Shown: one piece after another, positions 31,167 through 50,253 of the stretch | Numbering within the stretch: position 1 is the first letter of the stretch | How the letters are laid out: each line of letters opens with the position of its first letter | Assembly (NCBI RefSeq): GCF_003569045.1 | Contig: NZ_BFCB01000002.1 | Span: forward strand, 930,001-994,000 | DNA length: 64,000 nt | Reading direction: 5' to 3' | Origin: Aggregatilinea lenta | GTDB lineage: Bacteria > Chloroflexota > Anaerolineae > Aggregatilineales > Aggregatilineaceae | The notes under the pieces: model-generated | Databases searched by the model: none | The model's input: only the letters and a program-made list of their open reading frames with translations | What the model was told of the DNA's origin: nothing | Position numbers and translations under genes: made by a program

Positions 31167-32006
31167 TCACGTGCTGTTGGGGCCGCCGCTGGCCGCCGGA
31201 TAGGACCCCAGCATCTTGACCATCGACGCGCGGTGCAGCAGCGCGACCAGCGCCGCTTCGGAATCAGGGTCCTGCCAGTGACCCTCGAAATCCAGGTAGA
31301 ACCAGTACTGCCACGGACGCCCGCGAATGGGCCGCGACTCGATCTTAGTCAGGTTGATGTCACGCTCGGCAAACGCGCCAATGCAGTCGTACAGCGCGCG
31401 CGGGCGGTGGCGCACGCCGAACACCAGCGACGTCTTGCTCGGATCGTGGCGCGGGGCGTCGTCAGGGCCGATGACGAAAAAGCGGGTGGAGTTCATCGGG
31501 TCGTCTTCGATGCCGCTTTCGAGCGTGGTCAGGCCGTACAGCTCGCCCGCGAACGCGCTGGCAATAACCGCGGTGTGCGGCTCCGGCTTTTCGGCAAGAT
31601 CGTGCGCCGCGCCCGCCGTGTCGTACGTCGCCACCGGCTCCCAGCCGCGCCGCTGCAGCGTGTCGGCGCACTGCGCCAGCGCCTGCGGGTGCGACTTGAC
31701 GCGCCGCACGTCGTCCAGCGCGATGCCCTCCGGCGCAAGCAGATGGTGCCGGATCGCCAGCAGGACCTCGGCCTGCACGCGGAAGTCGTACTCCATCAGC
31801 AGCTCGTACGACTGGGCGACGGTGCCCGCCAGCGCGTTTTCGACCGGCAGCATGCCGTACGTCGCGTCGCCGCGCTGCACCGCCTGGAAGATGCCCGTAA
31901 AACTCTCGCACGGCAGCGTCTGCGCGTCCGGCCCGAAGTGCCGCCGGATCGCCTCCTCCGAATACGCGCCATGCTCGCCTTGAAAGGCTACGATCATGGA
32001 ATTCAC
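31167..32006 (-). CDS. pheA: Prephenate dehydratase
   Basis: The 279-residue protein is a monofunctional prephenate dehydratase without chorismate mutase. The catalytic part shows FQGEHGAYSEEA, LPVENALAGTV and NSTRFFVIG with the Thr-Arg-Phe active-site motif. A C-terminal ACT domain contains KIESRPIRGRPWQYWFY, the phenylalanine-binding ESRP segment, so feedback inhibition by Phe is expected. It makes phenylpyruvate for phenylalanine. GTG 32006 (GGGGG 6 bases upstream) is chosen; ATG 31997 is an equally possible start. A pterin dehydratase gene lies just upstream on the same strand. Confidence 0.95.
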   Translation of the reverse strand: MNSMIVAFQGEHGAYSEEAIRRHFGPDAQTLPCESFTGIFQAVQRGDATYGMLPVENALAGTVAQSYELLMEYDFRVQAEVLLAIRHHLLAPEGIALDDVRRVKSHPQALAQCADTLQRRGWEPVATYDTAGAAHDLAEKPEPHTAVIASAFAGELYGLTTLESGIEDDPMNSTRFFVIGPDDAPRHDPSKTSLVFGVRHRPRALYDCIGAFAERDINLTKIESRPIRGRPWQYWFYLDFEGHWQDPDSEAALVALLHRASMVKMLGSYPAASGGPNST

Positions 32007-32074
32007 TCTACGATCCCCCTCATGGATGGTAGATGCACGCCCGCGCCGGGCGTTTCAAAAGTGCTTGAACCGGG

Positions 32075-32380
32075 TTATGCATAACGCGGCAGCGCGTCGA
32101 TCTGCGTGACGAGGTCGAAGTCCTTGGACGTGATGCTGCCCTCGCTGTGGGTCATCAGGCGCACCGACACCTGCTTGTAGTCGTGAATGCAAAGGTCCGG
32201 GTGATGGTCCGCAACCTCGGCATAGTGCGCGATCGCGTTGACGAACAGCACCGCCTGATGAAAGTTCTTGAACATGAACTCGGCGTGAAGCTGCCCATCG
32301 CCCTCCAACCGCCAATCCGGGTGAGCTTGCAGCCGGGACTGGATCTCGACGTCGCTGTAGACCTGCAACTCGCGGGGCAT
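32075..32380 (-). CDS. Pterin-4a-carbinolamine dehydratase
   Basis: The 101-residue protein shows the full PCD active-site pattern ADHHPDLCIHDYKQVSVRL followed by the Thr-His-Ser and a conserved Asp (SKDFDL). The enzyme dehydrates 4a-hydroxytetrahydrobiopterin and recycles pterin cofactors; some bacterial forms serve molybdopterin or folate metabolism. GAGGAG lies 6 bases upstream of ATG 32380. It is 68 bases upstream of pheA on the same strand and diverges from folE, placing it between aromatic amino acid and pterin genes. Confidence 0.93.
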   Translation of the reverse strand: MPRELQVYSDVEIQSRLQAHPDWRLEGDGQLHAEFMFKNFHQAVLFVNAIAHYAEVADHHPDLCIHDYKQVSVRLMTHSEGSITSKDFDLVTQIDALPRYA

Positions 32381-32570
32381 CGCCGCTCCTCTCGAAGTAC
32401 CCAACGGGAAACGCCGGGGCGGACTGTAGTCGTGCTGTGCTGCGTGTGACTTCACCCCGATTATAGCGGTTCCGCTTGTGCGCTGGGGCACGAAGTGTTA
32501 CGCGGTTTCCGGTGAAATCGCCGCAGCCCGCCGCCGATTATGGCATCAAATGTTGTTTCAGGGTGTTAAA

Positions 32571-32595
32571 ATAGATTAACTTTATGTAAATCTAT
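32571..32595. promoter_or_regulatory. Inverted repeat upstream of folE
   Basis: ATAGATT and AATCTAT are perfect inverted 7-mers across 11 AT-rich bases, about 107 bases before the folE ATG, and a TAAAAT (32567-32572) -10-like element touches it. Candidate operator or divergent promoter. Confidence 0.45.
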
Positions 32596-32701
32596 TGGAA
32601 TTCTAAACTGTTCCTAACGTCCGTGCAGTATCCTGACCTTACTATCCCTGCATCTAACAGGTATACGGCATTTTACCTACAGTCAACGATAGGATAAACA
32701 C

Positions 32702-33349
32702 ATGGCCAGCACGCTCAAGCTACAATCCAACGGCAACGGGCACGTCCCCCGGCTCTCCGAACATCTGCATGAGCACGTCGAGGACGAACGACACGCCGCG
32801 ATTGAAGACGCCGTGCGCCAGATTTTGCTCCACGTGGGCGAAGATCCCGAACGCGACGGCCTGCTGCGCACGCCGCACCGCGTCGCCAACATGTACGACG
32901 AACTGCTCGAAGGCTATGGCCAGAGCGTGGACACGATCATCAACGGCGCGCTGTTCGACGTCCAGTATGGCGAAGGCGAAATGATCGTCGTCGCCGATAT
33001 CGACTACAACTCCCTGTGCGAGCACCACATGCTGCCGTTCGTGGGCAAAGTGCACGTCGCCTACATCCCGCGCAGCAAGGTGGTCGGCCTCAGCAAGATC
33101 CCGCGCCTCGTGGACATGTTCGCGCACCGGCTGCAAATTCAGGAGCGTTTGACCAACGAGATCGCGGACGCGATCCAGCAGGCGCTGGACCCGGTCGGCG
33201 TGATGGTGGTGGTCGAGGGCCAGCACAGTTGCGCGTCGCTGCGCGGCGTGAAAAAGCACGATACGAACATGGTCACCACCGCCAAACGCGGCGAGTTCCG
33301 CACCAACCGCGAGCTGCGCGACGAGTTCTACCGGCTGATCGGCAAATAG
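32702..33349 (+). CDS. folE: GTP cyclohydrolase I
   Basis: The 215-residue type I enzyme makes dihydroneopterin triphosphate from GTP, the first step of folate and biopterin synthesis. The zinc ligands are C106 and H109 ([10 protein letters not shown]) and C177 ([12 protein letters not shown]). The N-terminal 35 residues are a variable extension. It heads the plus-strand pterin/folate block that continues with the reductase at 33517 and, after an inserted island, with folB and folK. Confidence 0.96.
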
Positions 33350-33369
33350 CGCACGCGGCGATCCGTGAA

Positions 33370-33432
33370 GATCATGCTTGTCTCCCCTCTCCAGCCCAGA
33401 CTGGAGAGGGGCCGGGGGTGAGGTCGCGGTTG
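33370..33432. repeat. Composite intergenic repeat (hairpin module)
   Basis: TGTCTCCCCTCTCC-AGCCCAGACT-GGAGAGGGGCCGGGGGTGAGGTCGCGG lies between folE and the reductase gene. Confidence 0.7.
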
Positions 33433-33516
33433 TAGGGTAGTTTATAACTACGCCCAACGCCGCCCGGCATTGTGGCTTTCGGCCATACTACCTCAAACAA
33501 TCAGGGGGAATATCCC

Positions 33517-34284
33517 GTGGATCTCGATGGCAAAGTGGCGCTGGTGACCGGCGCGGCGCACAGGGTCGGCAAGGCGATCGCGCTGGCGTTGGCGGGTGAA
33601 GGCGCGCATATCGTCGTGCATTACGGCGGCAGTGTAGACGCCGCCCATGCAACGGCGGACGAGATCGAGGCGCTGGGCGTCGAGGCGCTGCCGGTCCAGG
33701 CGGATTTGAGCCAGCCGGAGACCATCAACCAGTTATTCGAGGCGGTCGAAGCGCGCTTTGGGCGTCTTGACGTGCTGGTCAACAGCGCGTCGAACTTCAT
33801 GAAACAACCGCTGGATGTTGTCGGGCTGGACGACTGGCAGATCACGATGGCGATCAACCTGCAGGCCCCGTTCCTATGCACGCAGCGCGCCGCCCCCCTG
33901 ATGCGCGCCGTCGAACGCCCCGCCGACCAACCCGCGCTGATCGTCAACATCACCGATCTGGCGGGCCTGTACCCCTGGCGCAGCTTCGTGCAGCACGGCG
34001 TCAGCAAAGCGGGGCTGGTCCACCTGACCAAGGTGTCCGCCCGCGAGCTGGCCCCGGCGATCCGCGTGAACGCCATCGCGCCTGGCCCGGTGCTGCCGCC
34101 CGCCTACATGGACCCGGACGGCGAGGCGTGGCAGCGCGTCTATGCCGCCGTGCCGCTCCAGCGCGCAGGCAAGCCGGAGCACGTCGCGCAAACGGTCGTG
34201 TTTTTAGCCCAGAATGATTTCATCACCGGGGCAGTGATCCCGGTGGACGGAGGCGAAAGCCTGCTCGGCGCAGCCAACCACTGA
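33517..34284 (+). CDS. Pteridine reductase/FolM-like SDR with Tyr-to-His active-site change
   Basis: The 255-residue SDR has the NAD(P) motif TGAAHRVG and NSASN. The block IVNITDLAG has Asp (D147) where most SDRs have Ser, the hallmark of FolM and PTR1, which reduce dihydromonapterin, dihydrofolate or biopterin. The active-site Tyr of YxxxK is replaced: H160-G-V-S-K164. A downstream APGPVLPP loop also fits this group. The start is GTG 33517 with AGGGGG upstream; an ATG 45 bases earlier lacks a ribosome site. Its last 169 bases are repeated at 37552-37720. Location next to folE supports a pterin role. Confidence 0.82.
   Translation: MDLDGKVALVTGAAHRVGKAIALALAGEGAHIVVHYGGSVDAAHATADEIEALGVEALPVQADLSQPETINQLFEAVEARFGRLDVLVNSASNFMKQPLDVVGLDDWQITMAINLQAPFLCTQRAAPLMRAVERPADQPALIVNITDLAGLYPWRSFVQHGVSKAGLVHLTKVSARELAPAIRVNAIAPGPVLPPAYMDPDGEAWQRVYAAVPLQRAGKPEHVAQTVVFLAQNDFITGAVIPVDGGESLLGAANH
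34116..34284 (+). repeat. 169-bp direct repeat, copy 1 (3' end of reductase gene)
   Basis: Identical to 37552-37720 except one base (A at 34167, C at 37603), a synonymous Ala codon change. It ends exactly at the TGA stop codon. It forms the left boundary of the inserted island. Confidence 0.97.
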
Positions 34285-34301
34285 GGTGATGCAATAGAAC
34301 C

Positions 34302-35906
34302 TTATTTTTTGGGGAGCGCATTAATGGCGGTATCCAGAAATTTTGCAACATCCGGCGACAATCGGTGCGGATAAACAATAATAAACAACAAAAGGAGTTC
34401 TGGTTGATCCTGAAATAGTTTTGGAATCTTAGCCACGCTTACTTGTTCTGCTTGCTTCCGCAAAGCCGCCCAACTTTGAGGCATTTGAGGGCGTGAAAGT
34501 CTCAGTGAACCAGAATCTTCCGATTGCCATAAGCAGAATTGCCAGGGTGATTCTGGTTGAAATTCAGCATAGTCCACATGCGTGATACTGGGCCATAAAG
34601 CTCGCATCGTTTGTCGCCAATTACGACGAGCAAAAAGCTGTACTAAACTCTCCAAAGTATATGAGCGACCCTTATATCTCTCCCTAGATTCATATGGTCC
34701 AATGCCGTATATCTGGCTTACTACTTCTGGTAAATCGTGATATGGATTTGCTAACTCACTCACTTGCTCAATATTGTTTGCATCGCAGATTGCTCTGATA
34801 ATCTGCACAAGTAACTTGTCAGCTTCAGGTTTCCCAGGTGTTACGCGCAAGAACCACATAGTTGCCAAAAACTGTGGAACTGCGGCTTCGCCCCACAACA
34901 TCAATTTATCTCGATAGAAAAGTACAAACGACCTAAACCAAGTATCTTTATAGGCTTCAATGCCAGAAAAACGCAACCAAAGCGCATAGGCAGATACAAG
35001 CCCTACCAACCATGTCACTCGCCCTCGGTAAAATGGCGCATCAACTAACGGTTGCCCCTCCACTAAGTGTGTACGTGATTGGAGTTCATCACAGAGATCG
35101 ACAAATGCTTGATGAATAGCATTTTTCGAAATTAACACGGAGTCAGTCCAATACTTTTCGTTCAAGTTCCGTTTTTCAACTAACGTGGTTAAGCAAGCAA
35201 TATACACCATCCAACCTTCTATCAAAGCTACATGGTTTGCTTTGGCTGTATATGCAGATAGGGAATAAGCCGTCATAATTGCCGCGCTAGCGAGCGCTCG
35301 ACTACAGTCGAGATTGCTTAACGCATCATCGTCAAGTGGAAGTAGCGAGAATATGAACTCAGCTAGTTTTGCTTTGTTCAGATAGTCTGTTCCATCAGAG
35401 AGAAATAATTCTAATAGTGTTTTTTCCGATGCCAATTGAATAGGCCAAAAATTAGTATGAAGCGCCTGGAAACGGTTCAGCAGTTGACCTTTAACAACAA
35501 CCTCCAGTTTCGGAAGTTGTCTCCTTTCCCAATCGCGGTTCCTATGATCGATTTCTATCCTTACTTCTTCATCTAACTCGCCGTTCGTCACAAAAAAAAC
35601 TCGTCGAGGGCTATCAGGGTCAATAGAGGGGTGTACAATTGGTATCTCGACAAGCCGAACGATCTGGGATATATACCTCTCCCATGCTGCCGCTGTAATT
35701 TTTCCGTGAGACGCACTTTTCAGTTGAAAAGCACACGGAGTTCTTTCTGGGGATATCGCTAATACATCTTTGCCTTCCTCGGCTGGCCCATGTCTAGTAC
35801 GGTGTATAACCTGATACCCTTCCCCTGTCAGGAGTTGGCAGAAAGGAATTTCAAAAGAACGCTCATTTACTCTAGTCAACCAGTTTTCGATTACTCTCTC
35901 GAACAC
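34302..35906 (-). CDS. Restriction-endonuclease-like protein (PD-(D/E)xK, QxK type)
   Basis: The N-terminal 130 residues look like a PD-(D/E)xK nuclease of the Mrr/QxK kind: E19 (SFEIPF) in the first helix, D47 (EEGKDVLAI) and Q61-L-K63 (AFQLKS). The large C-terminal part (about 140-534) is helical and unlike known domains to me; it may recognise the target or sense infection. The start is GTG 35906 with GAGGA 7 bases upstream, inside the end of the partner gene (35-base overlap). Codon use is much AT-richer than the host. A role in defence against foreign DNA is inferred from the nuclease fold and mobile setting. Confidence 0.7.
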   Translation of the reverse strand: MFERVIENWLTRVNERSFEIPFCQLLTGEGYQVIHRTRHGPAEEGKDVLAISPERTPCAFQLKSASHGKITAAAWERYISQIVRLVEIPIVHPSIDPDSPRRVFFVTNGELDEEVRIEIDHRNRDWERRQLPKLEVVVKGQLLNRFQALHTNFWPIQLASEKTLLELFLSDGTDYLNKAKLAEFIFSLLPLDDDALSNLDCSRALASAAIMTAYSLSAYTAKANHVALIEGWMVYIACLTTLVEKRNLNEKYWTDSVLISKNAIHQAFVDLCDELQSRTHLVEGQPLVDAPFYRGRVTWLVGLVSAYALWLRFSGIEAYKDTWFRSFVLFYRDKLMLWGEAAVPQFLATMWFLRVTPGKPEADKLLVQIIRAICDANNIEQVSELANPYHDLPEVVSQIYGIGPYESRERYKGRSYTLESLVQLFARRNWRQTMRALWPSITHVDYAEFQPESPWQFCLWQSEDSGSLRLSRPQMPQSWAALRKQAEQVSVAKIPKLFQDQPELLLLFIIVYPHRLSPDVAKFLDTAINALPKK

Positions 35907-36459
35907 GCCAGTCCTCGCGTTTACGATCTATAATTTGGCTATGCTGTTTCTCAAATTCAGGATCTTGCTCCCATTTGGGAATATCGTCTTTGATAGCATC
36001 CCAAAGCATGGGGGACATTACAATTGTTGGATTAACAGGATTTCCACTTGAGTCAAAAGATAGGTCGATTTTTTCTAAGGCGTGTAGAAATGTATCAGGC
36101 CCAATTGGTTCAGATTCTACATTCCCATCAGTTACTGCATATTCACTAAGCTTTTTAAATGTTGAGCGACTTACTTTCCCAGCTATTTCACGAGCCACTT
36201 GATCTAATTTTTGGGCAATTTCGGCGGGAGTTAAAAAAGGAATTTCATCGTTTTGAAGAGTGAAATTAGCTTCAATGGCTTCATAGCCTGATTCGCTTAC
36301 AGATCCGTCAATCCTTTCAATACGCCATTTTCCCCCTTCGTGATGTCGAAAAGATGGTATATTGCCTACAAAACCGGCATAGTGATATTGTTTTCGAATG
36401 AGATATTCATTCCAGAAGTCCATTAATTTGTTTTTTTGAATGGGGAAATCTGGAAGCAT
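35872..36459 (-). CDS. Uncharacterised partner of the QxK nuclease
   Basis: The 195-residue acidic protein has no recognised motif. It contains DFWNEYLIRKQYHYAGF near the start, a helical part around AEIAQKLDQVAREIAGKVS and a Lys/Arg/Glu-rich end. Its last 35 bases overlap the nuclease start, so expression is coupled. It could be an antitoxin-like inhibitor, a DNA-recognition subunit or a sensor. ATG 36459 is selected because AGGTG lies 6 bases upstream. An IS ends 31 bases before this start, so the native promoter is displaced about 1 kb. Confidence 0.55.
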   Translation of the reverse strand: MLPDFPIQKNKLMDFWNEYLIRKQYHYAGFVGNIPSFRHHEGGKWRIERIDGSVSESGYEAIEANFTLQNDEIPFLTPAEIAQKLDQVAREIAGKVSRSTFKKLSEYAVTDGNVESEPIGPDTFLHALEKIDLSFDSSGNPVNPTIVMSPMLWDAIKDDIPKWEQDPEFEKQHSQIIDRKREDWRVRESNRKLVD

Positions 36460-36490
36460 TTCTACACCTATTGCATAACAGATATAGCTA

Positions 36491-37483
36491 ACCCGATGTA
36501 CAAGTTTAATCGGACAGAAGGGCAGCGAACTGGAGCGGCGACGCCAAGCCAGCCTGCTGAGCCAGGAAAACCGCAAACGTATGACTGAGCAGCTTGCGCA
36601 ACCAGCGCGAACACAAATGCCAGGGATCACGGGCCCAGACACGCTTGCCTTGAAAGCGCTCGACCAATTGGCCGATGACGGTTTCGACACGGCGGCGGGT
36701 CTGGGTCAGCCAGCGCGGCCAGGGACGATGGTCACGCTTGACCGATGTTTTGCGCGGGGCGAGCAGGCAAGCGCCTTGCCGGACCAGATCGTCACGCAGC
36801 ATCGGGCTCCAGTAGTTGGTATCCCCCAGGACCCAGCCGTGGGCGTTGGCGAGCAGGTCTTCAGCCGCCCAGCGGTCATGCACATCGGCAGGAAAGACGG
36901 CCAGTCCCACAATCACGCCGGGCCAGCAGATGCGGACATGCACCCGCATCCCGAAGAAACGCTGCTTGGCCACATCGTCGTAGCCCCATGCCGACCACTC
37001 GCGCAGTCGTCGGCAGCGGTACGCGCGCCCAAAACGGCACACCGGCAGGGGAAAGCTGTCCACCACCGACAGCGCCGGGTCAAATGCCACCTGCGTCAGC
37101 AGATGCTGCCACAGTCGCTCTTTGACCCGCCACAGATTCGCCGCTTGACGCACAAATGTGACCCGGTCTACCTGCCGCAGCTTTGGAAACCACTCACTAT
37201 AGTGGCGACAGAAATGCTGATAGATCGCGTGGTCCGTATCGATGCTCAGGTATTCGCCGACGATTTCCATCGTCAGCACTTCGCTGTCGGCCAGGATCGG
37301 CTGCGGTCCGCGCTGTCGCACGCGCGGCTGCGTCTTGAGCCAGTCGTCAATGTAGCAGAAGATCGTGACCATAAACGTGATATGATCCATCTTGGAGCTC
37401 CTTGGTCGGATTTTTGGTGTCAGCTACCTCAGATCCTACAAGCAGCTCCTTTTTTTGTCAGTCCATAAACCTGTACATCGGGT
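36491..37483 (-). mobile_element. IS982-family insertion sequence, complete
   Basis: A 993-bp element with 18-bp inverted ends (ACCCGATGTACARGTTTA, one mismatch) at 36491-36508 and 37466-37483. It is flanked by TAGCTA on both sides (36485-36490 and 37484-37489), a 6-bp target duplication. The ACCC ends and transposase type fit IS982. Intact ends, target duplication and ORF suggest a recent insertion. Confidence 0.92.
36506..37390 (-). CDS. IS982-family transposase
   Basis: The 294-residue DDE transposase has VVDSFPLPVC (first Asp), VLGDTNYWS (second Asp) and RRRVETVIGQL (Glu), in the IS982 arrangement. Its stop codon lies within the left inverted end. AAGGAG is 9 bases before ATG 37390. It is intact, so the element may still move. 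Base composition is GC-rich, unlike the AT-rich island it sits in, which shows that it entered the island separately. Confidence 0.93.
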   Translation of the reverse strand: MDHITFMVTIFCYIDDWLKTQPRVRQRGPQPILADSEVLTMEIVGEYLSIDTDHAIYQHFCRHYSEWFPKLRQVDRVTFVRQAANLWRVKERLWQHLLTQVAFDPALSVVDSFPLPVCRFGRAYRCRRLREWSAWGYDDVAKQRFFGMRVHVRICWPGVIVGLAVFPADVHDRWAAEDLLANAHGWVLGDTNYWSPMLRDDLVRQGACLLAPRKTSVKRDHRPWPRWLTQTRRRVETVIGQLVERFQGKRVWARDPWHLCSRWLRKLLSHTFAVFLAQQAGLASPLQFAALLSD

Positions 37484-37551
37484 TAGCTAATAAATAAGCC
37501 CATGAATACTCTATCATAAGGTGCTTATAAACGATAGTATGCAGTGCGATT

Positions 37552-37720
37552 GGACGGCGAGGCGTGGCAGCGCGTCTATGCCGCCGTGCCGCTCCAGCGC
37601 GCCGGCAAGCCGGAGCACGTCGCGCAAACGGTCGTGTTTTTAGCCCAGAATGATTTCATCACCGGGGCAGTGATCCCGGTGGACGGAGGCGAAAGCCTGC
37701 TCGGCGCAGCCAACCACTGA
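37552..37720 (+). repeat. 169-bp direct repeat, copy 2 (reductase 3' end remnant)
   Basis: A promoterless fragment encoding the last 55 residues of the reductase, with the stop codon at 37718-37720. It is followed by the DNA that leads to the heliorhodopsin gene 60 bases later, so this junction is probably the original chromosomal order. Confidence 0.95.
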
Positions 37721-37780
37721 TCCGTCACCCCTTTTCACCTGCTTGTTCTGCGGCCTGCCCGCTTTAATGGAGATCTGACG

Positions 37781-38557
37781 ATGGAAACCAACGCCGATCG
37801 TTCGACGTTTCGTTCGCTGCGCCGCTTCAACGTGGCGATGGGGGTGCTGCACCTGATTCAAGGCGTGCTGATGCTGGCGCTCAGCAACGATTTCAGCGTG
37901 CCGATCAGCACCTATTTTTTGAAGTTCCAGGAGGGAGACGGGCTGGTCACGAACCCAAAGATTTTGTTCGATCTGCCGCTGGGACCGTTCATCGCGTCGT
38001 TCCTGTTCATGTCCGCGCTGGCGCATTTCGCCGTCTCGATGCCGGGCATTTACGAGTGGTACGTGCATAATCTACAGCGGGGCATCAACAAAGCCCGCTG
38101 GATCGAGTACTCGTTCAGCGCCTCGGTGATGATCGTCGCCATCGCAGCCCTGTTCGGCCTGTACGACATCGCGGCCCTGCTGCTGATCTTCGCCCTCAAC
38201 GCCGCCATGATCCTGTTCGGCTGGATGATGGAGCTGCACAACCAGACGACCGAAAAAGTCAACTGGACCGCGTTCATCTTCGGCTGCATCGTCGGGATCG
38301 TGCCGTGGATCGCGGTGGGCATTTACTTCGTCGGGTCGGTGAGCAGCGGCGAGCAGGTGCCGGGCTTCGTCTATGCGATTTATGTATCGCTGTTCTTGTT
38401 CTTTAACGTGTTTGCCGTCAATCAGGTGCTGCAATATGCAAAGGTCGGGCGCTGGCGCGATTACGTGTACGGCGAGCGCGCCTACATCGTGCTCAGCCTG
38501 GTCGCCAAGTCGCTGCTGGCGTGGCAGGTCTTTTTCGGCACGCTGCAGCCATCCTAG
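37781..38557 (+). CDS. Heliorhodopsin
   Basis: The 258-residue seven-TM protein carries the heliorhodopsin signatures. The retinal Schiff-base Lys is K243 in SLVAKSLLAWQ, the counterion is E109 in RWIEYSFSASVM, and H24 and H82 match the two conserved pocket histidines. YGERAYIVLSLVAK and NVFAVNQ are also typical. The N-terminus should face the cytosol, opposite to other rhodopsins. Heliorhodopsins are light sensors of still debated function and do not pump ions in known cases. GGAG lies 8 bases upstream of the ATG. No retinal-synthesis gene is in the window. It stands between the pterin reductase remnant and an epimerase gene, inside a folate cluster. Confidence 0.96.
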   Translation: METNADRSTFRSLRRFNVAMGVLHLIQGVLMLALSNDFSVPISTYFLKFQEGDGLVTNPKILFDLPLGPFIASFLFMSALAHFAVSMPGIYEWYVHNLQRGINKARWIEYSFSASVMIVAIAALFGLYDIAALLLIFALNAAMILFGWMMELHNQTTEKVNWTAFIFGCIVGIVPWIAVGIYFVGSVSSGEQVPGFVYAIYVSLFLFFNVFAVNQVLQYAKVGRWRDYVYGERAYIVLSLVAKSLLAWQVFFGTLQPS

Positions 38558-38634
38558 CGGCAAGTCACCGCGCCGTGTGGCGCAGCTTAGGCGTAGAATA
38601 GAAGTAGCGCAGCGGATCCCGGAGGTAGAAAGAA

Positions 38635-39585
38635 ATGGCTGTCGATCAGGGACTTCACGTCGTCCTGGGGACCGGTCCGATTGGGCTGGCCGTCATCGAA
38701 GAACTGGCCGCGACCGGCCAGCGCGTCCGCGCGGTGAACCGCAGCGGCAAGGCCAGCGTCCCGGCGAGCGTCGAGATGGCGACCGCCGACATCACCGATC
38801 CGGCCCAGGCGCGTACCGTGTGTGCGGGGGCCAGCGTCATTTACAATTGCACTAACCCGCCCGCCTACCAGGGTTGGCCCGAACTGCTGCCCCGCCTGCA
38901 AACGGGTATTCTGGCGGGCGCAGAAGCCGCCGGCGGGGCCAAGCTGATCGTCATGGACAACCTGTACATGTACGGCAACGTGCACGGCAAGCCCATGACG
39001 GAGGATATGCCCAACGCGGCCACGACCAAAAAGGGCGCGCTCCGGGCGCGTATTTCGGACAACTGGATGGCCGCGCACCACGCGGGCCGCGTGCGCGTGG
39101 TCATCGCCCGCGCCTCGGACTATTTTGGCCCGAACGGGCGCGGCTCCGGCATGGGCGACATCGTGTTCGGGCGCGCCGTGCAGGGCAAGTCCGCGCAGGC
39201 GATCGGGAATCCCGATATGCCGCACACGTATACCTACATCCCCGACATCGGCAGGGCGCTGGCGATTCTGGGCGCGCGCGACGAGGCGCTGGGCGAGATC
39301 TGGCACGTGCCCAGCCCGGAGACGATCACCACGCGCGCGTTCATCGAGCGCATCGAGCAGGCGCTGGGGCGTCCGGTCAAGATCCAGGTCGCGCCAACGC
39401 TGCTGATCCGCGCGCTGGGCCTGTTCCAGCCCGTCATGCGCGAGCTGGTCGAGATGATGTACGAGTTCAACGAGCCGTTCATCCTGGATACCAGCAAGTT
39501 CGCGGCGGCGTTTGGGGACATCAGCACGCCGCTCTCTGAAGCCATCCCTGCGACGGCGGCGTGGTTCAAGGAACACAGTGGTTAG
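38635..39585 (+). CDS. NAD(P)-dependent epimerase/dehydratase family protein
   Basis: The 316-residue extended-SDR protein has an atypical nucleotide motif, VVLGTGPIGLAV (GxGxxG), and lacks the Y-x3-K pair in its usual place: the segment reads DNLYMYGN and later SDNWMAAHH. It resembles the atypical SDRs that act as isoflavone-reductase-like or NmrA-type proteins. GGAGG lies 8 bases before the ATG. It follows heliorhodopsin by 77 bases on the same strand and could share its transcript. Substrate unknown. Confidence 0.78.
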   Translation: MAVDQGLHVVLGTGPIGLAVIEELAATGQRVRAVNRSGKASVPASVEMATADITDPAQARTVCAGASVIYNCTNPPAYQGWPELLPRLQTGILAGAEAAGGAKLIVMDNLYMYGNVHGKPMTEDMPNAATTKKGALRARISDNWMAAHHAGRVRVVIARASDYFGPNGRGSGMGDIVFGRAVQGKSAQAIGNPDMPHTYTYIPDIGRALAILGARDEALGEIWHVPSPETITTRAFIERIEQALGRPVKIQVAPTLLIRALGLFQPVMRELVEMMYEFNEPFILDTSKFAAAFGDISTPLSEAIPATAAWFKEHSG

Positions 39586-39599
39586 TCGTTCGTTTTTAG

Positions 39600-40040
39600 T
39601 GGTTAGTAAAGGCAAGATCAAACGCGACCTCACCCCCTGGCCCCCTCTCCAATCGAGGTTGGAGAGGGGGAAAAGGCGGGTTAAGCCGTGGCCTCTTCCT
39701 TCCGCTTGCGATACGGTTGGCGAACGCGACGCGATGGTGTTTCGAAGGGGCGGGTTCATGCTCTTTAACGTTTAAATCCGGACAAAATCAGGGCGGGTTA
39801 GAAACCCGCCCCTACAACCCCCGTTGAGACGGCTTGTCTCCCCTCTCCAGCCCAGACTGGAGAGGGGCCGGGGGTGAGGTCGCGGTGATGACCGGATTAT
39901 TTTATTAAACTGCATCAAACCCGCCCGGTAGGGGCCGTTCATGAACTGCCCCTACAAAATCAATTCGCCAACAGGTTCGCTGGCGTGGGGAAGGGAAAAA
40001 AGCAAGATCTGGGCGGAGCAAGCCCCGCCCCTACGGGGAA
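39600..40040. repeat. Cluster of composite intergenic repeats
   Basis: Two hairpin modules (39625-39675 and 39833-39887) in opposite orientation and four GTAGGGGCGGG-like palindromes (39745, 39789-39824, 39923-39955, 40008-40036). Positions 39758-39898 are nearly identical to 53822-53965. They fill the 493-bp gap before folB. Confidence 0.75.
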
Positions 40041-40078
40041 ATTATACGACAGCGGAACAAAGGAGAGTGCGGCAGACC

Positions 40079-40450
40079 ATGCCCGCCCAAGACAAGATCA
40101 TCGTGAAGGACCTGCTGCTGCGCGGCATCATCGGCCTGAATGACTGGGAGCGCGAGAAACGGCAGGACATCCTGATCAACCTGACGCTGTTCACCGACAT
40201 GCGCGCCGCCGGGCGCTCCGACGATGCGGCGGACATCCTGAACTACCGCACGATCACGAAAGCGATCATCGCGTACGTCGAGTCGTCGCAGCACACTCTC
40301 GTCGAGGCGCTGGCAACCGAGATCGCGCGCATCTGCGTGGTGGATCACGACGCGGCGCGGGCCATCGTGCGCGTGGAGAAACCCGGCGCGCTGCGTTTTG
40401 CCGGATCGGTGGGCGTGGAGATCGAGCGGGAGCGCGCCGACTTTGCGTAA
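40079..40450 (+). CDS. folB: Dihydroneopterin aldolase
   Basis: The 123-residue protein matches FolB: VKDLLLRGIIGLNDWERE with the substrate-binding region, YRTITKAI and the catalytic Lys in VRVEKPGA. It converts dihydroneopterin to 6-hydroxymethyl-dihydropterin plus glycolaldehyde. ATG 40079 is chosen; AAGGAG lies 13 bases upstream and a GTG four codons earlier would abut it. Its end overlaps the probable folK start by eight bases. Confidence 0.94.
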   Translation: MPAQDKIIVKDLLLRGIIGLNDWEREKRQDILINLTLFTDMRAAGRSDDAADILNYRTITKAIIAYVESSQHTLVEALATEIARICVVDHDAARAIVRVEKPGALRFAGSVGVEIERERADFA

Positions 40451-40979
40451 CGGCCCGATCATCATCCTGCTCGGCTCCAACATCGCCCCGCGCGCGAACC
40501 TGCTGGCGGCGGTGCGCCTGCTGGCCGCGCACGAGCACGTGACCGTGCGCGCCGCGTCGCGCGTCTACCAAAGCGCGCCGGTCGATGCGCAGGGGCGGAT
40601 CGACCCGGCGCAGGACCCGTTCCTCAACGCCGCGCTGTGCGTCGAGACGGATCTGGCGCCCGTCGAGCTGAAGTTCGGCGTGCTGCGCGCCGTCGAGGCG
40701 CAGTTGGGCCGCGTGCGCACCGAAGACAAGTTCGCGCCGCGCCCGATTGACCTGGACATCGTGCTGTACGGTGACCTCGTGTTGGACGACGCCGAGAACG
40801 GCATCACCCTGCCCGACCCGGACCTGCTGCGGCGCGCGCACGTCGCGCTGCCCGCCGCCGACGTCGCGCCGGACGCGACCCACCCCGTCACCGGGCAGCG
40901 GCTGGCCGAGATCGCCGCGTCGCTGAGCGGCACGGATCTCCGGCTGGCCGACGACCTCGATCTCGCTTGCGCAATTTAG
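40443..40979 (+). CDS. folK: 6-hydroxymethyl-dihydropterin pyrophosphokinase
   Basis: HPPK motifs are clear: LLGSNIAPRANL, VYQSAPV, QDPFLNAA and FAPRPIDLDIVLYGD with the two metal-binding Asp. It attaches pyrophosphate to the FolB product. No ATG is well placed; TTG 40443 overlaps the folB stop by eight bases with GGGAG 10 bases upstream and gives 178 residues. An ATG at 40398 inside folB would add 15 residues. No folP is seen in the window. Confidence 0.92.
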   Translation: MRNGPIIILLGSNIAPRANLLAAVRLLAAHEHVTVRAASRVYQSAPVDAQGRIDPAQDPFLNAALCVETDLAPVELKFGVLRAVEAQLGRVRTEDKFAPRPIDLDIVLYGDLVLDDAENGITLPDPDLLRRAHVALPAADVAPDATHPVTGQRLAEIAASLSGTDLRLADDLDLACAI

Positions 40980-45737: not shown

Positions 45738-45945
45738 AGAGCGTGTTATGCACTTTTTGAGTGAGGAAACTGGTTCGATCCCTGCCCATTGACGCATGAT
45801 CTGTAGGGGCGGGTTTGTAACCCGTCCGGATCTTGCTTACCCGGGGTCCCCGCGCAACAGGGTTGCGTGGGTGATTTTCCCCTTCCCTCCGCTGGCGTGG
45901 GGGAAGGGGCCAGGGGATGGGGGCTATAAGTTCATAACAGGCTCT
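45738..45945. mobile_element. MITE-like element, 208 bp
   Basis: AGAGCGTGTTATGCACTT (45738-45755) is inverted at 45928-45945 (AAGTTCATAACAGGCTCT), 16 of 18 matching. A TA dinucleotide flanks both ends, as in IS630/mariner-type elements. The inside contains GTAGGGGCGGGTTTGTAACC and a hairpin of the composite-repeat type, but no gene. It occupies the space between two convergent genes. Confidence 0.6.
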
Positions 45946-46024
45946 AGAGATTCGGGCGTGGACTGCTGTACGCCTCCGGAACGTCAAAATCAGGTGGAAA
46001 TAATTGTTATGCCGATGCAAGAAG

Positions 46025-48040
46025 CTACTTGTCGCAATAATCCTGAACGGCTTTGATTATTCCACGAGTGGGCTCTTGGAAATTTGGATAAAGTTTCCCA
46101 ATTTGTTCTTCAAGATCAAGGTTGCAGTCGAGAATCTCACGCCAGGCATCAGCTAGGGCGTGATAATCAGGATCGGGATGTTGCTTGTAATGCGTCAGTA
46201 GCTGCCTGACCCTTCCCTTTTTTTCTTCATCTGATTCACGAAGCGCTTGCACCAGCAAACTCGCCACAACATTTAAATCTACAAAGGTATGGACAGCACT
46301 ATCGAGCGTGTCGGCTTCACCAAGATCACCATAAAGTACACTTAGCATTGACAGTCGCTGGTGGATATAGACACTTATTGTTCCCTTAGCATCTTTTTCT
46401 TGCGCTGTAACAGGCTGAATCTCTAACACCGTTTTATAAGTTCTAAAGGCCTTTTGAGGTTGCCCAAAGGCTTCATATGCCTGCCCCAAGGTCGCTAATA
46501 CAGCAAAGCGACCAATGTCACTTTGGTATTGTTCTTGAAAGTCGATAGAAACTGCCCTTTCAAGGTAGATGATGCATTCTTTCTCACCGCGCGAGAGCAA
46601 TAACTCGCCTAATTGATAAACCAACTGCTGACTAAGTGGATTAGCCTGCACTGCATGACGAACGACCTCGATTGCTTCGTCTATACGTCCCAAAGTCTTT
46701 AAATAGTCCCCATAATTGGCCCATACTTTGATTTCGTGTGGTAGTTTCTCGACACCTGCATCTAGCTCATTAATGATTTGCTGCTCCAGGTCTGGCGTAT
46801 GAGGCAACTCTTGTAGCGCATCAGTGTAGAACACCACGGGACGCCAATTGCGCCAGTAACCTTCAGGGTATATTTGCTTCCAGCCTGCCATGAATTCACA
46901 CGCTTCTTCGACCGAACGAGAAATAGTCATGGCACGAGTCAGGGTCGCAGCCAAGTCCCAATCACTGGGATATCGGCCATGCCCCTTATGGGCAATTTCG
47001 TAGGCTAGAACATATTCATTTTGCCTAAAAGCTTGCATACAAGAGTTAAAGAAATTATTACGGGAGCCTGGTAAATCTCGTTCTACGATCAGTGCAAGCG
47101 CTTTTCTGGCCGATACCGAGTCTCCGGTCTCATGGAAACGATCAGCCAAGCGATGCGCTTGTTCCACTGAGGTAACTTGAATAACGCCAGACAGTTCTTT
47201 AAAATCCGATTCAACAGTTAGCCAGTGGTATTGGGCTAGCAGGGTTTCAACCCCAGCAATACGTTCCTCAATTTGCCCAGCCCGGCCTTCTAGCTGATTG
47301 ATAACTGTATCTTTTGACGTTTGAAAGCTTGTCAACGAACGTTCAACTCGTGCTTGGGTATCCTCCATCAACTTTTGCAGTTCGTCTTCCAGTTTTTCCA
47401 CCTGCTCATAAACATAAGCGCGTAAAATATTCTGATTATCTTCGGAACCGTCTTTAATTTGGATTCTTAATGAGTCACGTAAAGAAGTGATTTCTTGATC
47501 GATCGATCCTAGCCGTTGCAATCCTAACACACCAGCCACACCCAAGACAATCGCGCCCAACAAACCCAGTAGAATGTCTTGCAACGCCGAATCCGGTTTG
47601 GATTGCATTGTTTCAAGTGTATCCAATGCAGCTTGATTTTTTGCGTTGTAGTCCCTAAAAGTGCTGACCAGTTCTTCTTGATCGAGTTGCACTGTCCCTG
47701 TGATATTCTGTGAGGCGCTTGCAATCAATGCATCCGTAATTTCCTTGTTACTTTTTCGCAGTTCGTCGATGATATCTTCACCTTTGCCAGGAATAATCCC
47801 GAAACGGAAGCCAAGAACGATGCAGATAACCGTAACGACAACTATGAACCCACCGAGGAGCATGTTACGCTGTGTAGTTCTTCGATAATCTTGGATTGCT
47901 TCATCAATTTGATTCTTTATGATTTGCTCATGTATTACGGCCTTTTCTGGTTCGTTATTGATTGAGTTAGGCGAAGGGCCTATAGATTCAGGAAACTTTA
48001 CAACAGTCTCAGTCACTTGAGTCTTCCTTCCCAAAAGCAT
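46025..48040 (-). CDS. Membrane protein with coiled coil and TPR-like repeats, AT-rich
   Basis: The 671-residue protein has two TM segments (about 60-80 and 155-175), a long coiled coil (about 190-275, rich in E/L/Q/K) and a C-terminal region of TPR-like helix pairs (about 290-600; for example WANYGDYLKTLGRIDEAIEV and YQLGELLLSRGEKECIIYLE). Both termini appear cytosolic. GTG 48082 is rejected since a TATAAT -10 overlaps it; ATG 48040 is used, although no clear ribosome site is present. Base composition is far more AT-rich than neighbours, which suggests transfer. It could be a scaffold or defence-associated sensor; nothing proves this. Confidence 0.72.
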   Translation of the reverse strand: MLLGRKTQVTETVVKFPESIGPSPNSINNEPEKAVIHEQIIKNQIDEAIQDYRRTTQRNMLLGGFIVVVTVICIVLGFRFGIIPGKGEDIIDELRKSNKEITDALIASASQNITGTVQLDQEELVSTFRDYNAKNQAALDTLETMQSKPDSALQDILLGLLGAIVLGVAGVLGLQRLGSIDQEITSLRDSLRIQIKDGSEDNQNILRAYVYEQVEKLEDELQKLMEDTQARVERSLTSFQTSKDTVINQLEGRAGQIEERIAGVETLLAQYHWLTVESDFKELSGVIQVTSVEQAHRLADRFHETGDSVSARKALALIVERDLPGSRNNFFNSCMQAFRQNEYVLAYEIAHKGHGRYPSDWDLAATLTRAMTISRSVEEACEFMAGWKQIYPEGYWRNWRPVVFYTDALQELPHTPDLEQQIINELDAGVEKLPHEIKVWANYGDYLKTLGRIDEAIEVVRHAVQANPLSQQLVYQLGELLLSRGEKECIIYLERAVSIDFQEQYQSDIGRFAVLATLGQAYEAFGQPQKAFRTYKTVLEIQPVTAQEKDAKGTISVYIHQRLSMLSVLYGDLGEADTLDSAVHTFVDLNVVASLLVQALRESDEEKKGRVRQLLTHYKQHPDPDYHALADAWREILDCNLDLEEQIGKLYPNFQEPTRGIIKAVQDYCDK

Positions 48041-48071
48041 AAAATAATAATGGTTTTTAATCTTTAGTAGT

Positions 48072-48077
48072 ATTATA
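48072..48077 (-). promoter_or_regulatory. -10 hexamer of the 46025-48040 gene
   Basis: TATAAT on the minus strand, 32 bases before ATG 48040; the -35 (TTTCTT) is weak. Confidence 0.45.
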
Positions 48078-48138
48078 ACCACTGCAAGTAATATAAGAAA
48101 AATATATATCCACTGACAAAATGTGTCAATAAGAAATC

Positions 48139-50253
48139 TTAAAACCCGGAAACATCATTCCGTGACAAAACATAGTACAGCACGAACTGCTTGTCGACCG
48201 GCACGTCGGGATTGGTCGTGTAGTGTAGATCCTGACGGCCAAAGGCTGCCAGCAGCCGCCCGAAGGTCGTCAGGTCTTCGCGCCCAACGAAGAAGGCCAG
48301 CGTCTTGTCGCGCGGGAGCGCGGCGAGCATGTCCTGGTTGATCGCGCTCGGCGTGAACGTCTGCACGATCAGCCCGTCCGCGAGGTAGCTCAGGAAGTTC
48401 TGCGCGTCGCTCTGCGCCTGGATCTTGTCGCCCACGAGGTAGATCGGCGTGCCGGGCGGCAGCTCCGCCGCGCGCAGCAGCGCGTCGTCCGCGTCCAGGT
48501 CGAGGTAGTCGCGCGCCTCGGCGTTGAACGTGCGCAGGAACGGCCCGAAGTAAAACAGCACCTGCCACGCCGCGACGATCACCGCCAGCGCCGCGACGAG
48601 GCCCGTCTGCGCGCGGGCAGGCCAGCGCGGCGGCCACAGCAGCGGCAGCGTATGGCACAGCCCCAGCGCGATCAGCAGCGCCAGCGCCGGAAACACGACG
48701 TTGTAGCGCGCGGAGACGGCGCTTTCGATCAGCAGCGCGTTGCCCGCCGAGGTCGCCAGTACCCACAGCAGCGGCAGCACGCCCGGCCTGCGCCAGCGCC
48801 ACAGCGCGATCCCTCCCCCCAACAGCAGCAGCGGCACGAACCACTCCAGCACGAAGGGATGCTCGCCGCCGTAATACAGGAAGTAGAAGACAATCGTGTT
48901 TTCCGGCGCGTTGACGTACAGCATCAGCGAATGGCGGAAGTGCGCCAACCGCGTGGTCAGCGTGTCCGGCTCGCGGTCGCGCTGCCAGTACTCCACGTTC
49001 ATCTCGGTTTTTTCCAGGCGGCTGAACAACGGGAAGTCCAGCCCGGCGAGCGTGTAGTAGACCGGCATGGCAACCAGCAGAAACGCCAGCAGCGCAATGA
49101 GCGCGCCGCGCAGCGCAGGCCGGGGCCGCCACACGATCCAGCCGCCCACCAGCCACCCCAGCGCCAGCAGCGGGAACAGCAGCCGCCCCGCCTCGTAAAA
49201 ATACTGCGTGAGACCGAGCATCACGCCGCCGAGCGCCCAATCCAGGCGGGAGCCGCCGCGCAGCCCGCGCGCCAGGAACGCCAGCGCCAGCGTACCGAAG
49301 ACCGGGTCCGCGACGATGTTCATGCCCAACCGCGAAAAGTGCAGGTGCGGCGGGAAGGTCGCCAGCAGCAGCGCGGCGACGATGGCCGTCCGACGGTCGA
49401 ACAGGGTGCGCGCCAGCAGGTACAGCGCCGGGATTCCCAGTGCGCCGGCGAGTGCGCTCACCGCGCGCAGGCCGGTCAGGGTGCGGCCCAGCAGCTCGAC
49501 TGCGCCCGCCTGCCAGTAGGAGAAGACATAGGGCGACGAGGCGGCGGTCGGCATGGGCGTCAGCAGCTTCACGTCCGGCGCGGGGCGGTCCCAGAAAACG
49601 CGGATGCCCACCGTGAAGTGGTTCTCGTCCACCAGCACGCGCACCGTGTCGTCCAGTCCCCAGAGGCGCAGCCCCAACGCGGCCAGCGTGATCGCAGCGA
49701 CCAGCGCGATCTCGCGCCAGGGCACGGCCATCCGGTGCAGTCGCGGCGCGCCGCCGAGTCCCCACGCGACCAGCGCGCAGCCCCCGACCAGCAGCGCGAA
49801 CTGGACGTGATGCGACATGCCTTGCAGTGCGCCGATGCCGAGCACCTCGCCGTTCGCTTCGGCCAGGGCCAACAGCGCCAGCGTACCGATTCCGGCGACG
49901 AGCCATGCACGCCAGCGCCCTGACCCGATCCGCGCGGCGGCGACGTTGGGCAGCGGCAACGCGCGCGGCGAGACGGCCAGCGCCAGCCCCATCAGGAGCA
50001 CCCCGGCCAGCAAGTACCACGGCGCGACGGCCCGGAAGTGCGACTCCGGGCCGGGCGTGGGCCGGTAATGGATCAGGCTTTCGGGCATGGGGCGGAAGGC
50101 GTAGGCGCTGAGCGCCATCAATACGCAGGCCGCCAGCGCCAGCAGCCCGCCGATCAGCGTGCGGTGCGCGGCGATCCAGCGCAGCACGGCGCTGATCGGT
50201 CCGCGTTCGGACCGGCGCGCCGCCAGTCGTTCATGCAGTGGGAAATGTGACAC
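48139..50253 (-). CDS. GT39-like polytopic glycosyltransferase
   Basis: The 704-residue integral membrane protein has about 12-13 TMs and a C-terminal soluble part (about 580-700). The loop after the sixth TM contains VDENHFTVGI, with the Asp-Glu pair typical of dolichyl-phosphate-mannose protein mannosyltransferase-like (GT39/ArnT) enzymes, and HLHFSRLGMN and YFYEAGR later. Such enzymes move a sugar from a polyprenyl phosphate to a protein or lipid outside the membrane. GTG 50253 is used, with GAGGA close upstream; ATG 50319 is possible but would begin with an odd Cys/Trp-rich stretch. Confidence 0.8.
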   Translation of the reverse strand: MSHFPLHERLAARRSERGPISAVLRWIAAHRTLIGGLLALAACVLMALSAYAFRPMPESLIHYRPTPGPESHFRAVAPWYLLAGVLLMGLALAVSPRALPLPNVAAARIGSGRWRAWLVAGIGTLALLALAEANGEVLGIGALQGMSHHVQFALLVGGCALVAWGLGGAPRLHRMAVPWREIALVAAITLAALGLRLWGLDDTVRVLVDENHFTVGIRVFWDRPAPDVKLLTPMPTAASSPYVFSYWQAGAVELLGRTLTGLRAVSALAGALGIPALYLLARTLFDRRTAIVAALLLATFPPHLHFSRLGMNIVADPVFGTLALAFLARGLRGGSRLDWALGGVMLGLTQYFYEAGRLLFPLLALGWLVGGWIVWRPRPALRGALIALLAFLLVAMPVYYTLAGLDFPLFSRLEKTEMNVEYWQRDREPDTLTTRLAHFRHSLMLYVNAPENTIVFYFLYYGGEHPFVLEWFVPLLLLGGGIALWRWRRPGVLPLLWVLATSAGNALLIESAVSARYNVVFPALALLIALGLCHTLPLLWPPRWPARAQTGLVAALAVIVAAWQVLFYFGPFLRTFNAEARDYLDLDADDALLRAAELPPGTPIYLVGDKIQAQSDAQNFLSYLADGLIVQTFTPSAINQDMLAALPRDKTLAFFVGREDLTTFGRLLAAFGRQDLHYTTNPDVPVDKQFVLYYVLSRNDVSGF

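What the first reader, a model, noticed from the sequence alone, without database searches (positions are those of the whole stretch)
34116..37720. Island bounded by a 169-bp direct duplication of a gene's 3' end
Positions 34116-34284 and 37552-37720 are identical over 169 bp except one synonymous Ala codon change. Copy 1 completes the pterin reductase gene; copy 2 is a headless fragment whose downstream DNA leads straight to heliorhodopsin. The 3.27 kb between them is AT-rich apart from the IS, and has no recombinase. This fits single-crossover integration of a circular molecule carrying a piece of the gene, or a site-specific element that restores its target. The synonymous change argues that one copy came from a related strain or that the event is not brand-new.
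Basis: partly seen in the sequence, partly recalled or inferred. Interest (0 to 1): 0.82.

Follow-up and report, generated by a model that had tools for sequence, protein, structure and literature searches.

The report
Nuclease gene pair between duplicated ends
A two-gene nuclease cassette, probably an anti-virus defence, has been dropped next to a vitamin-metabolism gene in a bacterial chromosome, leaving a second copy of that gene's last 169 letters and no sign of the enzyme that put it there; this way of moving defence genes is known but unexplained.

Summary
In 4 of 20 relatives' loci this gene lies directly beside heliorhodopsin, so 34285-37551 is an insertion. The cargo is an Mrr-type nuclease gene (34302-35906) and a 195-aa partner (35872-36459) overlapping by 35 nt. 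The pair accompanies 6 of 6 other copies found and is distantly related to OloB of the Olokun defence system. A 993-bp IS982 with a 6-bp target duplication lies inside. No integrase or resolvase match lies on the 1.91-Mb contig. Best reading: integrase-free insertion with long target duplication, as reported for restriction-modification genes; single-crossover integration of a circle is the main rival. None of the 6 other copies has comparable flanking repeats, so they belong to this event. In 1.98 Mb of this genome one other AT-rich block of 16 is so flanked (92 bp, 95%). Known kind of event, little-known cargo.

The parts
33517..34284 (+). Target gene: SDR, best NCBIfam match pteridine reductase; its last 169 bp are copy 1
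   Evidence: adh_short_C2 1.3e-49; best NCBIfam match PRK09135 pteridine reductase 5.6e-65 (219 bits, below its 288-bit cut-off)
34116..34284 (+). Copy 1 of the 169-bp duplication; ends on the last base of TGA
34285..37551 (.). Inserted DNA, 3267 bp (2274 bp without the 993-bp IS)
   Evidence: absent at the orthologous place in 4 of 20 relatives' loci that keep SDR beside heliorhodopsin
34302..35906 (-). Gene 1: 534-aa Mrr-type PD-(D/E)xK nuclease with long C-terminal region; distant OloB relative
   Evidence: (D47, Q61, K63 invariant in 7 of 7); no family hit of its own at E up to 1
35872..36459 (-). Gene 2: 195-aa partner of unknown fold, overlapping gene 1 by 35 nt
   Evidence: no hit in Pfam, NCBIfam or PADLOC at E up to 1; PHROGs only E 0.28 and 0.33
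36485..36490 (+). 6-bp target duplication TAGCTA of the IS, left
36491..37483 (.). IS982-family insertion sequence, 993 bp; one of 3 identical or nearly identical copies in the genome
   Evidence: (NF033520, 5.1e-52)
36506..37390 (-). IS982 transposase
37484..37489 (+). 6-bp target duplication TAGCTA of the IS, right
37490..37551 (.). Remaining upstream (leader) DNA of the two-gene cassette
   Evidence: role inferred from position
37552..37720 (+). Copy 2 of the 169-bp duplication: headless SDR end beside the native right flank
37781..38557 (+). Heliorhodopsin gene, native right neighbour
   Evidence: PF18761, 1.8e-104; same neighbour of SDR in 4 of 20 relatives' loci

Best explanation
A compact two-gene nuclease cassette (probably anti-phage defence) was inserted at the 3' end of a pteridine-reductase-like gene by a route needing no recombinase of its own, and the target's last 169 bp were duplicated in the process, so the gene stayed whole. 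[quoted passage not shown] An IS982 entered the cassette separately, 31 bp upstream of gene 2. The 99.4% identical direct repeats would let homologous or slippage recombination remove the island and restore one intact reductase gene. Shown: duplication, insertion by gene order, two-gene module, IS with its own target duplication inside the island, no integrase or resolvase match on the contig. Inferred: the repair route, defence function, ability to excise, and that the IS came after the cassette's arrival (it has near-identical copies elsewhere in this genome).
For: Exact 169-bp duplication unique to this place. Empty site by gene order in 4 of 20 loci. Cargo GC3 is 0.39 and 0.29 against 0.85-0.87 for four neighbouring genes. 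The pair accompanies 6 of 6 other gene-1 copies with 32-35-nt overlap, so the inserted unit is a module with little else: 17 bp beyond gene 1's stop, about 93 bp ahead of gene 2 without the IS. D47/Q61/K63 conserved in 7 of 7; Mrr_cat matches 2 of 7 at E up to 0.1. Recombinases: 0 of 10 PF00589 and 0 of 8 PF00239 matches on the contig. No exact inverted match longer than 7 nt between the outer 50 nt of the two ends. [quoted passage not shown] A second AT-rich block has 92-bp flanking repeats.
Against: One case only: 0 of 6 other copies of the pair have straddling repeats at E up to 0.001 within 1.5 kb. The block ends exactly on the stop codon, an unexplained coincidence if ends are free. No methyltransferase in the cargo, so it is not a restriction-modification system in the strict sense. 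No same-genus genome was among those searched, so the empty site is seen only at 67-79% protein identity, not base by base; and 9 of the 16 other loci had more than 3 kb downstream without heliorhodopsin, so the neighbourhood is not universal. The second AT-rich block shares part of its repeat with a common terminator-like repeat and has no empty-site support. How such insertions happen is not established in what I read.
Confidence: 0.55

Rival explanations
1. Single-crossover (Campbell) integration: a circle holding the cassette plus a 169-bp piece of the gene from a related strain recombined with the chromosomal gene. The circle could itself be an excision product of an older insertion of the same form, so this reading overlaps with the first.
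For: Gives exactly two direct copies around the insert; the one base difference would be the related strain's allele. GCA (copy 1) is the rarer Ala codon in the neighbouring genes, which would suit an imported copy 1.
Against: One difference is equally well one later mutation. A blastn search of plasmids with 34000-34700 gave 11 records; the 10 listed match only about 70-94 bases of the SDR gene ahead of the block, none the island. One exact 24-nt junction word was absent from viral contigs. It does not say how the circle got the gene piece.
Confidence: 0.28
2. Site-specific element whose attachment site is the gene's 3' end and whose integrase is lost or acts in trans (as in elements that replace the 3' end of icd; recalled).
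For: The block ends exactly at the stop codon and the gene is restored, as such elements do; 169 bp is within the range of known long identity blocks (recalled). H47 island: long repeats, no recombinase gene of its own, yet excision shown (PMC3191183, passages).
Against: No integrase or resolvase match on the contig; 0 of 17 relatives with at least 1 kb downstream show an adjacent AT-rich occupant or a duplicated end; six other copies lie at other places without comparable repeats.
Confidence: 0.12
3. Homology-facilitated illegitimate recombination: a donor fragment already carrying SDR end plus island recombined by homology on one side and joined by a few shared bases (GGAC) inside the gene on the other.
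For: GGAC begins the block at both left junctions, which allows a short shared word at the right-hand joint.
Against: Needs an earlier insertion in the donor; 4 shared bases are expected often by chance.
Confidence: 0.15
4. Assembly artefact or contamination joined at a repeat.
For: No reads were available; listed contamination is 4.66%.
Against: A 169-bp repeat is easily spanned by long reads, and the genome has 5 contigs for 6.2 Mb, though the read type is not known here; the structure keeps an intact gene and a 60-bp right junction like the 61-bp one in L026.
Confidence: 0.03

Closest known systems
Insertion with long target duplication of restriction-modification genes (Nobusato et al. 2000, seen only as cited; passages in PMC3031569, PMC1643837, PMC4978471)
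   Same: Small nuclease-bearing insert, no recombinase, long direct duplication of target, absent in relatives
   Different: Cargo here has a nuclease and an unknown partner, no methyltransferase; one event; comparison is across genera, not strains
Microcin H47 genomic island, E. coli (PMC3191183, passages read; PMC5426353, abstract read)
   Same: Integrase-less island between extensive direct repeats
   Different: H47 is 13 kb with imperfect repeats and excision was shown by PCR; here 3.3 kb, 99.4% identical repeats that are the end of a protein gene, excision untested
Olokun defence system (OloA + OloB)
   Same: Two genes (recalled); two of seven gene-1 proteins match OloB (best 1.9e-9; one nearly end to end at 3e-5)
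   Different: The window's own gene 1 does not reach E 1 against OloB, and no gene-2 protein has a PADLOC match
Mrr-type restriction endonucleases (PF04471)
   Same: N-terminal domain with D...QxK
   Different: Some 380 further residues of unknown fold and a partner gene found with every copy
Integrase islands at protein-gene 3' ends (icd of E. coli; recalled)
   Same: Target gene restored by an identical end carried on the element
   Different: No integrase; no other occupant seen at this site in relatives

Membership tests
Insertion with long target duplication | Insert absent at the orthologous place in relatives | tested here: met
   4 of 20 loci keep SDR-heliorhodopsin adjacency. Of the other 16, 7 had under 2.5 kb downstream and 9 had more than 3 kb without heliorhodopsin
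Insertion with long target duplication | Target present once when empty, twice when filled | tested here: met
   No second copy of the SDR end in any of 20 loci, 17 of them with at least 1 kb downstream; two copies here
Insertion with long target duplication | Cargo is a restriction-modification system | tested here: not met
   Nuclease plus unknown partner, no methyltransferase found
Insertion with long target duplication | Duplication lengths vary between events | tested here: inconclusive
   A second candidate of 92 bp in the same genome, without empty-site support
Integrase-type genomic island | Own tyrosine or serine recombinase | tested here: not met
   None in the insert nor on the contig
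Integrase-type genomic island | Same site used by other elements in relatives | tested here: not met
   0 of 17
H47-type integrase-less island | Excision and integration without island-encoded recombinase | not testable with these tools
   Needs PCR or reads
Olokun | OloB homologue | tested here: inconclusive
   2 of 7 gene-1 proteins match, the window's protein does not; as a genome search OloB rang in 1 of 298 genomes of the class, not in this one
Olokun | OloA homologue | tested here: not met
   0 of 7 gene-2 proteins match any PADLOC model at E up to 1
Mrr-type nuclease | PD-(D/E)xK motif with D...QxK (motif recalled) | tested here: met
   D47, Q61, K63 invariant in 7 of 7; Mrr_cat 1e-4 in the Rhodococcus member
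IS982 | Family transposase, inverted ends, target duplication | tested here: met

The most novel reading that the evidence does not exclude
The cassette moves by itself without transposase or integrase: its own Mrr-type nuclease cuts the target with widely spaced nicks and host repair fills in the long overhangs, so a defence nuclease doubles as insertion machinery and prefers gene 3' ends, where duplication spares the gene.
Probability: 0.06. Interest if true: 0.85.

Novelty: new member of a known kind. Interest (0 to 1): 0.42.

Why it matters
How defence genes without recombinases enter chromosomes is an old open question, raised for restriction-modification genes. This case gives both junctions nearly unchanged (one base in 169), an empty arrangement in relatives and a minimal two-gene cargo. 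The same nuclease-partner pair, with its nearly fixed overlap, was found at seven places in all (this one and six others) and is thinly covered by the family libraries searched, so it is also a candidate defence system to test.

Tried and rejected
IS982 as the cause of the insertion: rejected, it has its own 6-bp duplication inside the island and does not touch the 169-bp repeats. Shared hot spot at the SDR gene: rejected, 0 of 17. Long repeats as a trait of the gene pair: rejected, 0 of 6 other copies at E up to 0.001 within 1.5 kb (L043 had only 1250 bp on one side); ungapped searches of the fetched loci showed only short low-identity pairs astride the pair (25 nt at 80% in L042, 31 and 34 nt at 74-76% in L041, and a low-complexity family in L041), likely chance. 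Recurrent mechanism in this genome: weak. In 1.984 Mb (C2:370001-1554000 and C3:400001-1200000) 21 direct-repeat pairs of at least 60 bp and 85% identity lie within 12 kb; 2 enclose DNA under 52% GC (this one and C2:1049764-1050544), and 2 of 16 AT-rich blocks are so flanked. A control gave 0 of 400 random intervals with repeats of 40 bp or more at 90%. That same script missed this finding's own repeat, because its flank windows did not reach it (the IS shifts the block edge), and it showed 29- and 34-bp repeats at two further AT-rich stretches. The second block's empty site could not be shown: its right neighbour was not found in the 11 relatives' loci searched around the left neighbour's homologue. 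Structure predictions had low confidence (mean pLDDT 42 and 47), so no fold search was run. Gene 1 searches in viral contigs and phages found nothing; searches of solved structures gave nothing useful. Rfam gave nothing in 32000-40000 at E up to 0.1. Literature: 'long target duplication' 19 papers listed; 'Olokun' with two more terms 6 papers, passages read in two, without gene details; 'OloA/OloB' 17 papers, none relevant among the 8 listed; a combined search on defence and target duplication gave 0.
Full report
What is there. The window lies at 930001-994000 of contig C2 (1,911,206 bases) of an unnamed 6.2-Mb genome in 5 contigs. The two 169-bp blocks at 34116-34284 and 37552-37720 are identical except for one base (34167 A, 37603 C), a synonymous change in an alanine codon. 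They occur nowhere else in the genome. In 100 block-shuffled windows no 20-mer recurred. Both blocks stop on the last base of TGA. Sequences outside the blocks differ at once on both sides; GGAC, the first four bases, is counted in the block.

What was inserted. Genes to the left are folE (GTP cyclohydrolase I, PF01227) and the SDR gene; to the right are heliorhodopsin (PF18761, E 1.8e-104) and an epimerase-family gene. I fetched the 20 loci with the best SDR matches outside this genome, in 20 of the 60 relatives searched. In 4 of 20 (L019, L020, L021, L026) the SDR gene is followed directly by heliorhodopsin, with 61-170 bp between the match ends; L019 and L020 also keep the epimerase-family gene. 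Of the other 16, 7 had under 2.5 kb downstream, and 9 had more than 3 kb in which heliorhodopsin was not found, so the neighbourhood is not universal. I take SDR-heliorhodopsin as the order before insertion, copy 2 as the native right side (60 bp to heliorhodopsin) and 34285-37551 as the insert. No relative has a second SDR end; 17 of 20 had at least 1 kb downstream to look at, none of these is under 50% GC in the first kilobase, and only L024 has such DNA within 3.5 kb, starting about 1.5 kb away. In the four loci SDR is 67-69% and heliorhodopsin 76-79% identical in protein, so this is an empty site by gene order, not base by base. No genome of the same genus was among the 60 relatives.

The cargo. 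The insert is 43% GC in 34285-36490 and 34% in 37484-37551 against 63% for the window; GC3 is 0.39 and 0.29 for its two genes against 0.85-0.87 for folE, SDR, heliorhodopsin and the epimerase-family gene. Gene 1 (534 aa) gave no hit in Pfam, NCBIfam, PADLOC or PHROGs at E up to 1 and no relative in the 399 other genomes of the phylum searched with the single sequence. A plasmid search found one relative, annotated restriction endonuclease, on Rhodococcus qingshengii plasmid NZ_CP096567, next to a 195-aa hypothetical protein. A seven-sequence profile over 400 genomes of the phylum gave two weak partial matches besides its own. In 6 of 6 other full loci a gene-2 homologue precedes gene 1 in the same orientation; the Rhodococcus one is only weakly like the window's gene 2 directly (E 0.009) but matches the one in L044 at 7.7e-10. 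Gene-start choices in L017, L042 and L043 are mine, by homology. Overlap is 35 nt in 6 of 7 loci and 32 nt in L044. The seven-way alignment keeps E43, D47, Q61 and K63 of gene 1 invariant, the D...QxK pattern of Mrr-type nucleases (motif recalled); Mrr_cat (PF04471) matches 2 of 7 at E up to 0.1. PADLOC's OloB matches 2 of 7: P0015 at 1.9e-9, best over the N-terminal part, and P0013 at 3e-5 almost end to end; four others (P0006, P0008, P0009, P0011) gave nothing even at E 10, nor did the window's own at E 1. A search of 298 genomes of the class with OloB itself rang in one. None of seven gene-2 proteins matches any PADLOC model at E up to 1. The pair is therefore a distant relative of, or analogous to, Olokun, not a shown member. 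Defence function is inferred. I scanned nine neighbours from three of the six other loci: 4 of 9 matched PADLOC at 1e-5, a HamB-like helicase, a DEDDh exonuclease and a short GajA-like ATPase fragment in Rhodococcus and a type III methyltransferase in L043; 5 of 9 matched nothing, the one Roseomonas neighbour among them. Generic helicase and ATPase domains make some of these hits weak evidence.

The IS. 36491-37483 is a 993-bp IS982-family element (NF033520, 5.1e-52), one of three identical or nearly identical copies in the genome, each with a 6-bp target duplication (TAGCTA, TAGCTA, TAGCGG). It lies inside the island, 31 bp upstream of gene 2 and transcribed in the same direction. It entered the cassette on its own; that it did so after the cassette reached this place is inferred from its copies elsewhere in this genome. 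It may silence or drive the pair (inferred).

How it got in. The insert has no recombinase but the IS transposase, and 0 of 10 Phage_integrase and 0 of 8 Resolvase matches in the genome lie on this contig. The outer 50 nt of its ends share no exact inverted match longer than 7 nt. The layout is what has been called insertion with long target duplication in restriction-modification genes. I read citing passages only (PMC3031569, PMC4978471, PMC1643837); in PMC2614495 only the reference was met. I did not look the original paper up by id, and a later one (PMC2853133) is not held. The closest documented integrase-less island between long repeats in what I read is microcin H47 (PMC3191183, passages). 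It excises in E. coli K12, and no tested recombination function was found responsible (PMC5426353, abstract). A circle integrating by single crossover would look the same as the present case, and an island between 99% identical 169-bp repeats could make such circles, so the two readings may be two phases of one history; the odds given for the readings overlap for this reason and were not changed in checking.

Against my reading. Of seven copies of the pair only this one has straddling repeats by the test used. The block's end on the stop codon is not explained by free ends, though selection for an intact gene requires the end at or beyond it. The control across this genome is modest: 2 of 16 AT-rich blocks in 1.984 Mb are flanked by repeats of at least 60 bp, and 2 of 21 close repeat pairs enclose AT-rich DNA, while 3267-bp stretches under 50% GC make up 0.1% of the C2 region. 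The second block's 92-bp repeat is 95% identical, its last 60 nt or so belong to a common terminator-like repeat, and its empty site was not found.

Verdict. A real insertion of a conserved nuclease-partner pair with long target duplication, fairly recent if the single difference in 169 bp is a clock (gene conversion between the copies could also keep them alike). The event is of a known kind whose mechanism is open; the cargo is little known.

Noticed in passing
window 32075-40979: Heliorhodopsin sits in a pterin/folate gene cluster (pterin-4a dehydratase, folE, pteridine-reductase-like SDR, HPPK) and is beside the SDR gene in 4 of 20 relatives' loci: a possible lead to its function.
   Followed up: partly
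own genome C2:1049764-1050544 (L055): A 599-bp, 43% GC stretch with a 148-codon open frame (145 aa from its ATG) lies between 92-bp direct repeats (95%) just after a small gene that looks membrane-bound by eye.
   Followed up: partly
window 35872-35906 and L016, L017, L041, L042, L043, L044: The 35-nt gene 2/gene 1 overlap is kept in 6 of 7 loci (32 nt in the seventh), suggesting translational coupling.
   Followed up: partly
window 8279-56432, eight places: A GC-rich palindrome-like repeat (CCTCACCCCCGGCCCCTCTCC...) recurs, perhaps a REP-like or MITE-like element.
   Followed up: no
window 45862-48408: Another AT-rich block (46% GC) holding a 685-aa TPR-repeat protein gene at 46025-48082; no flanking repeats found by the test used.
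   Followed up: partly
own genome C3:2101495-2218197: Two of the 10 integrase and 7 of the 8 resolvase matches of the genome cluster here, probably a mobile-element region.
   Followed up: no
L017 11799-12395 and 12993-13589: Two stretches of 298 bp are each repeated perfectly in tandem with a one-base gap in the Roseomonas record, likely scaffolding artefacts.
   Followed up: no
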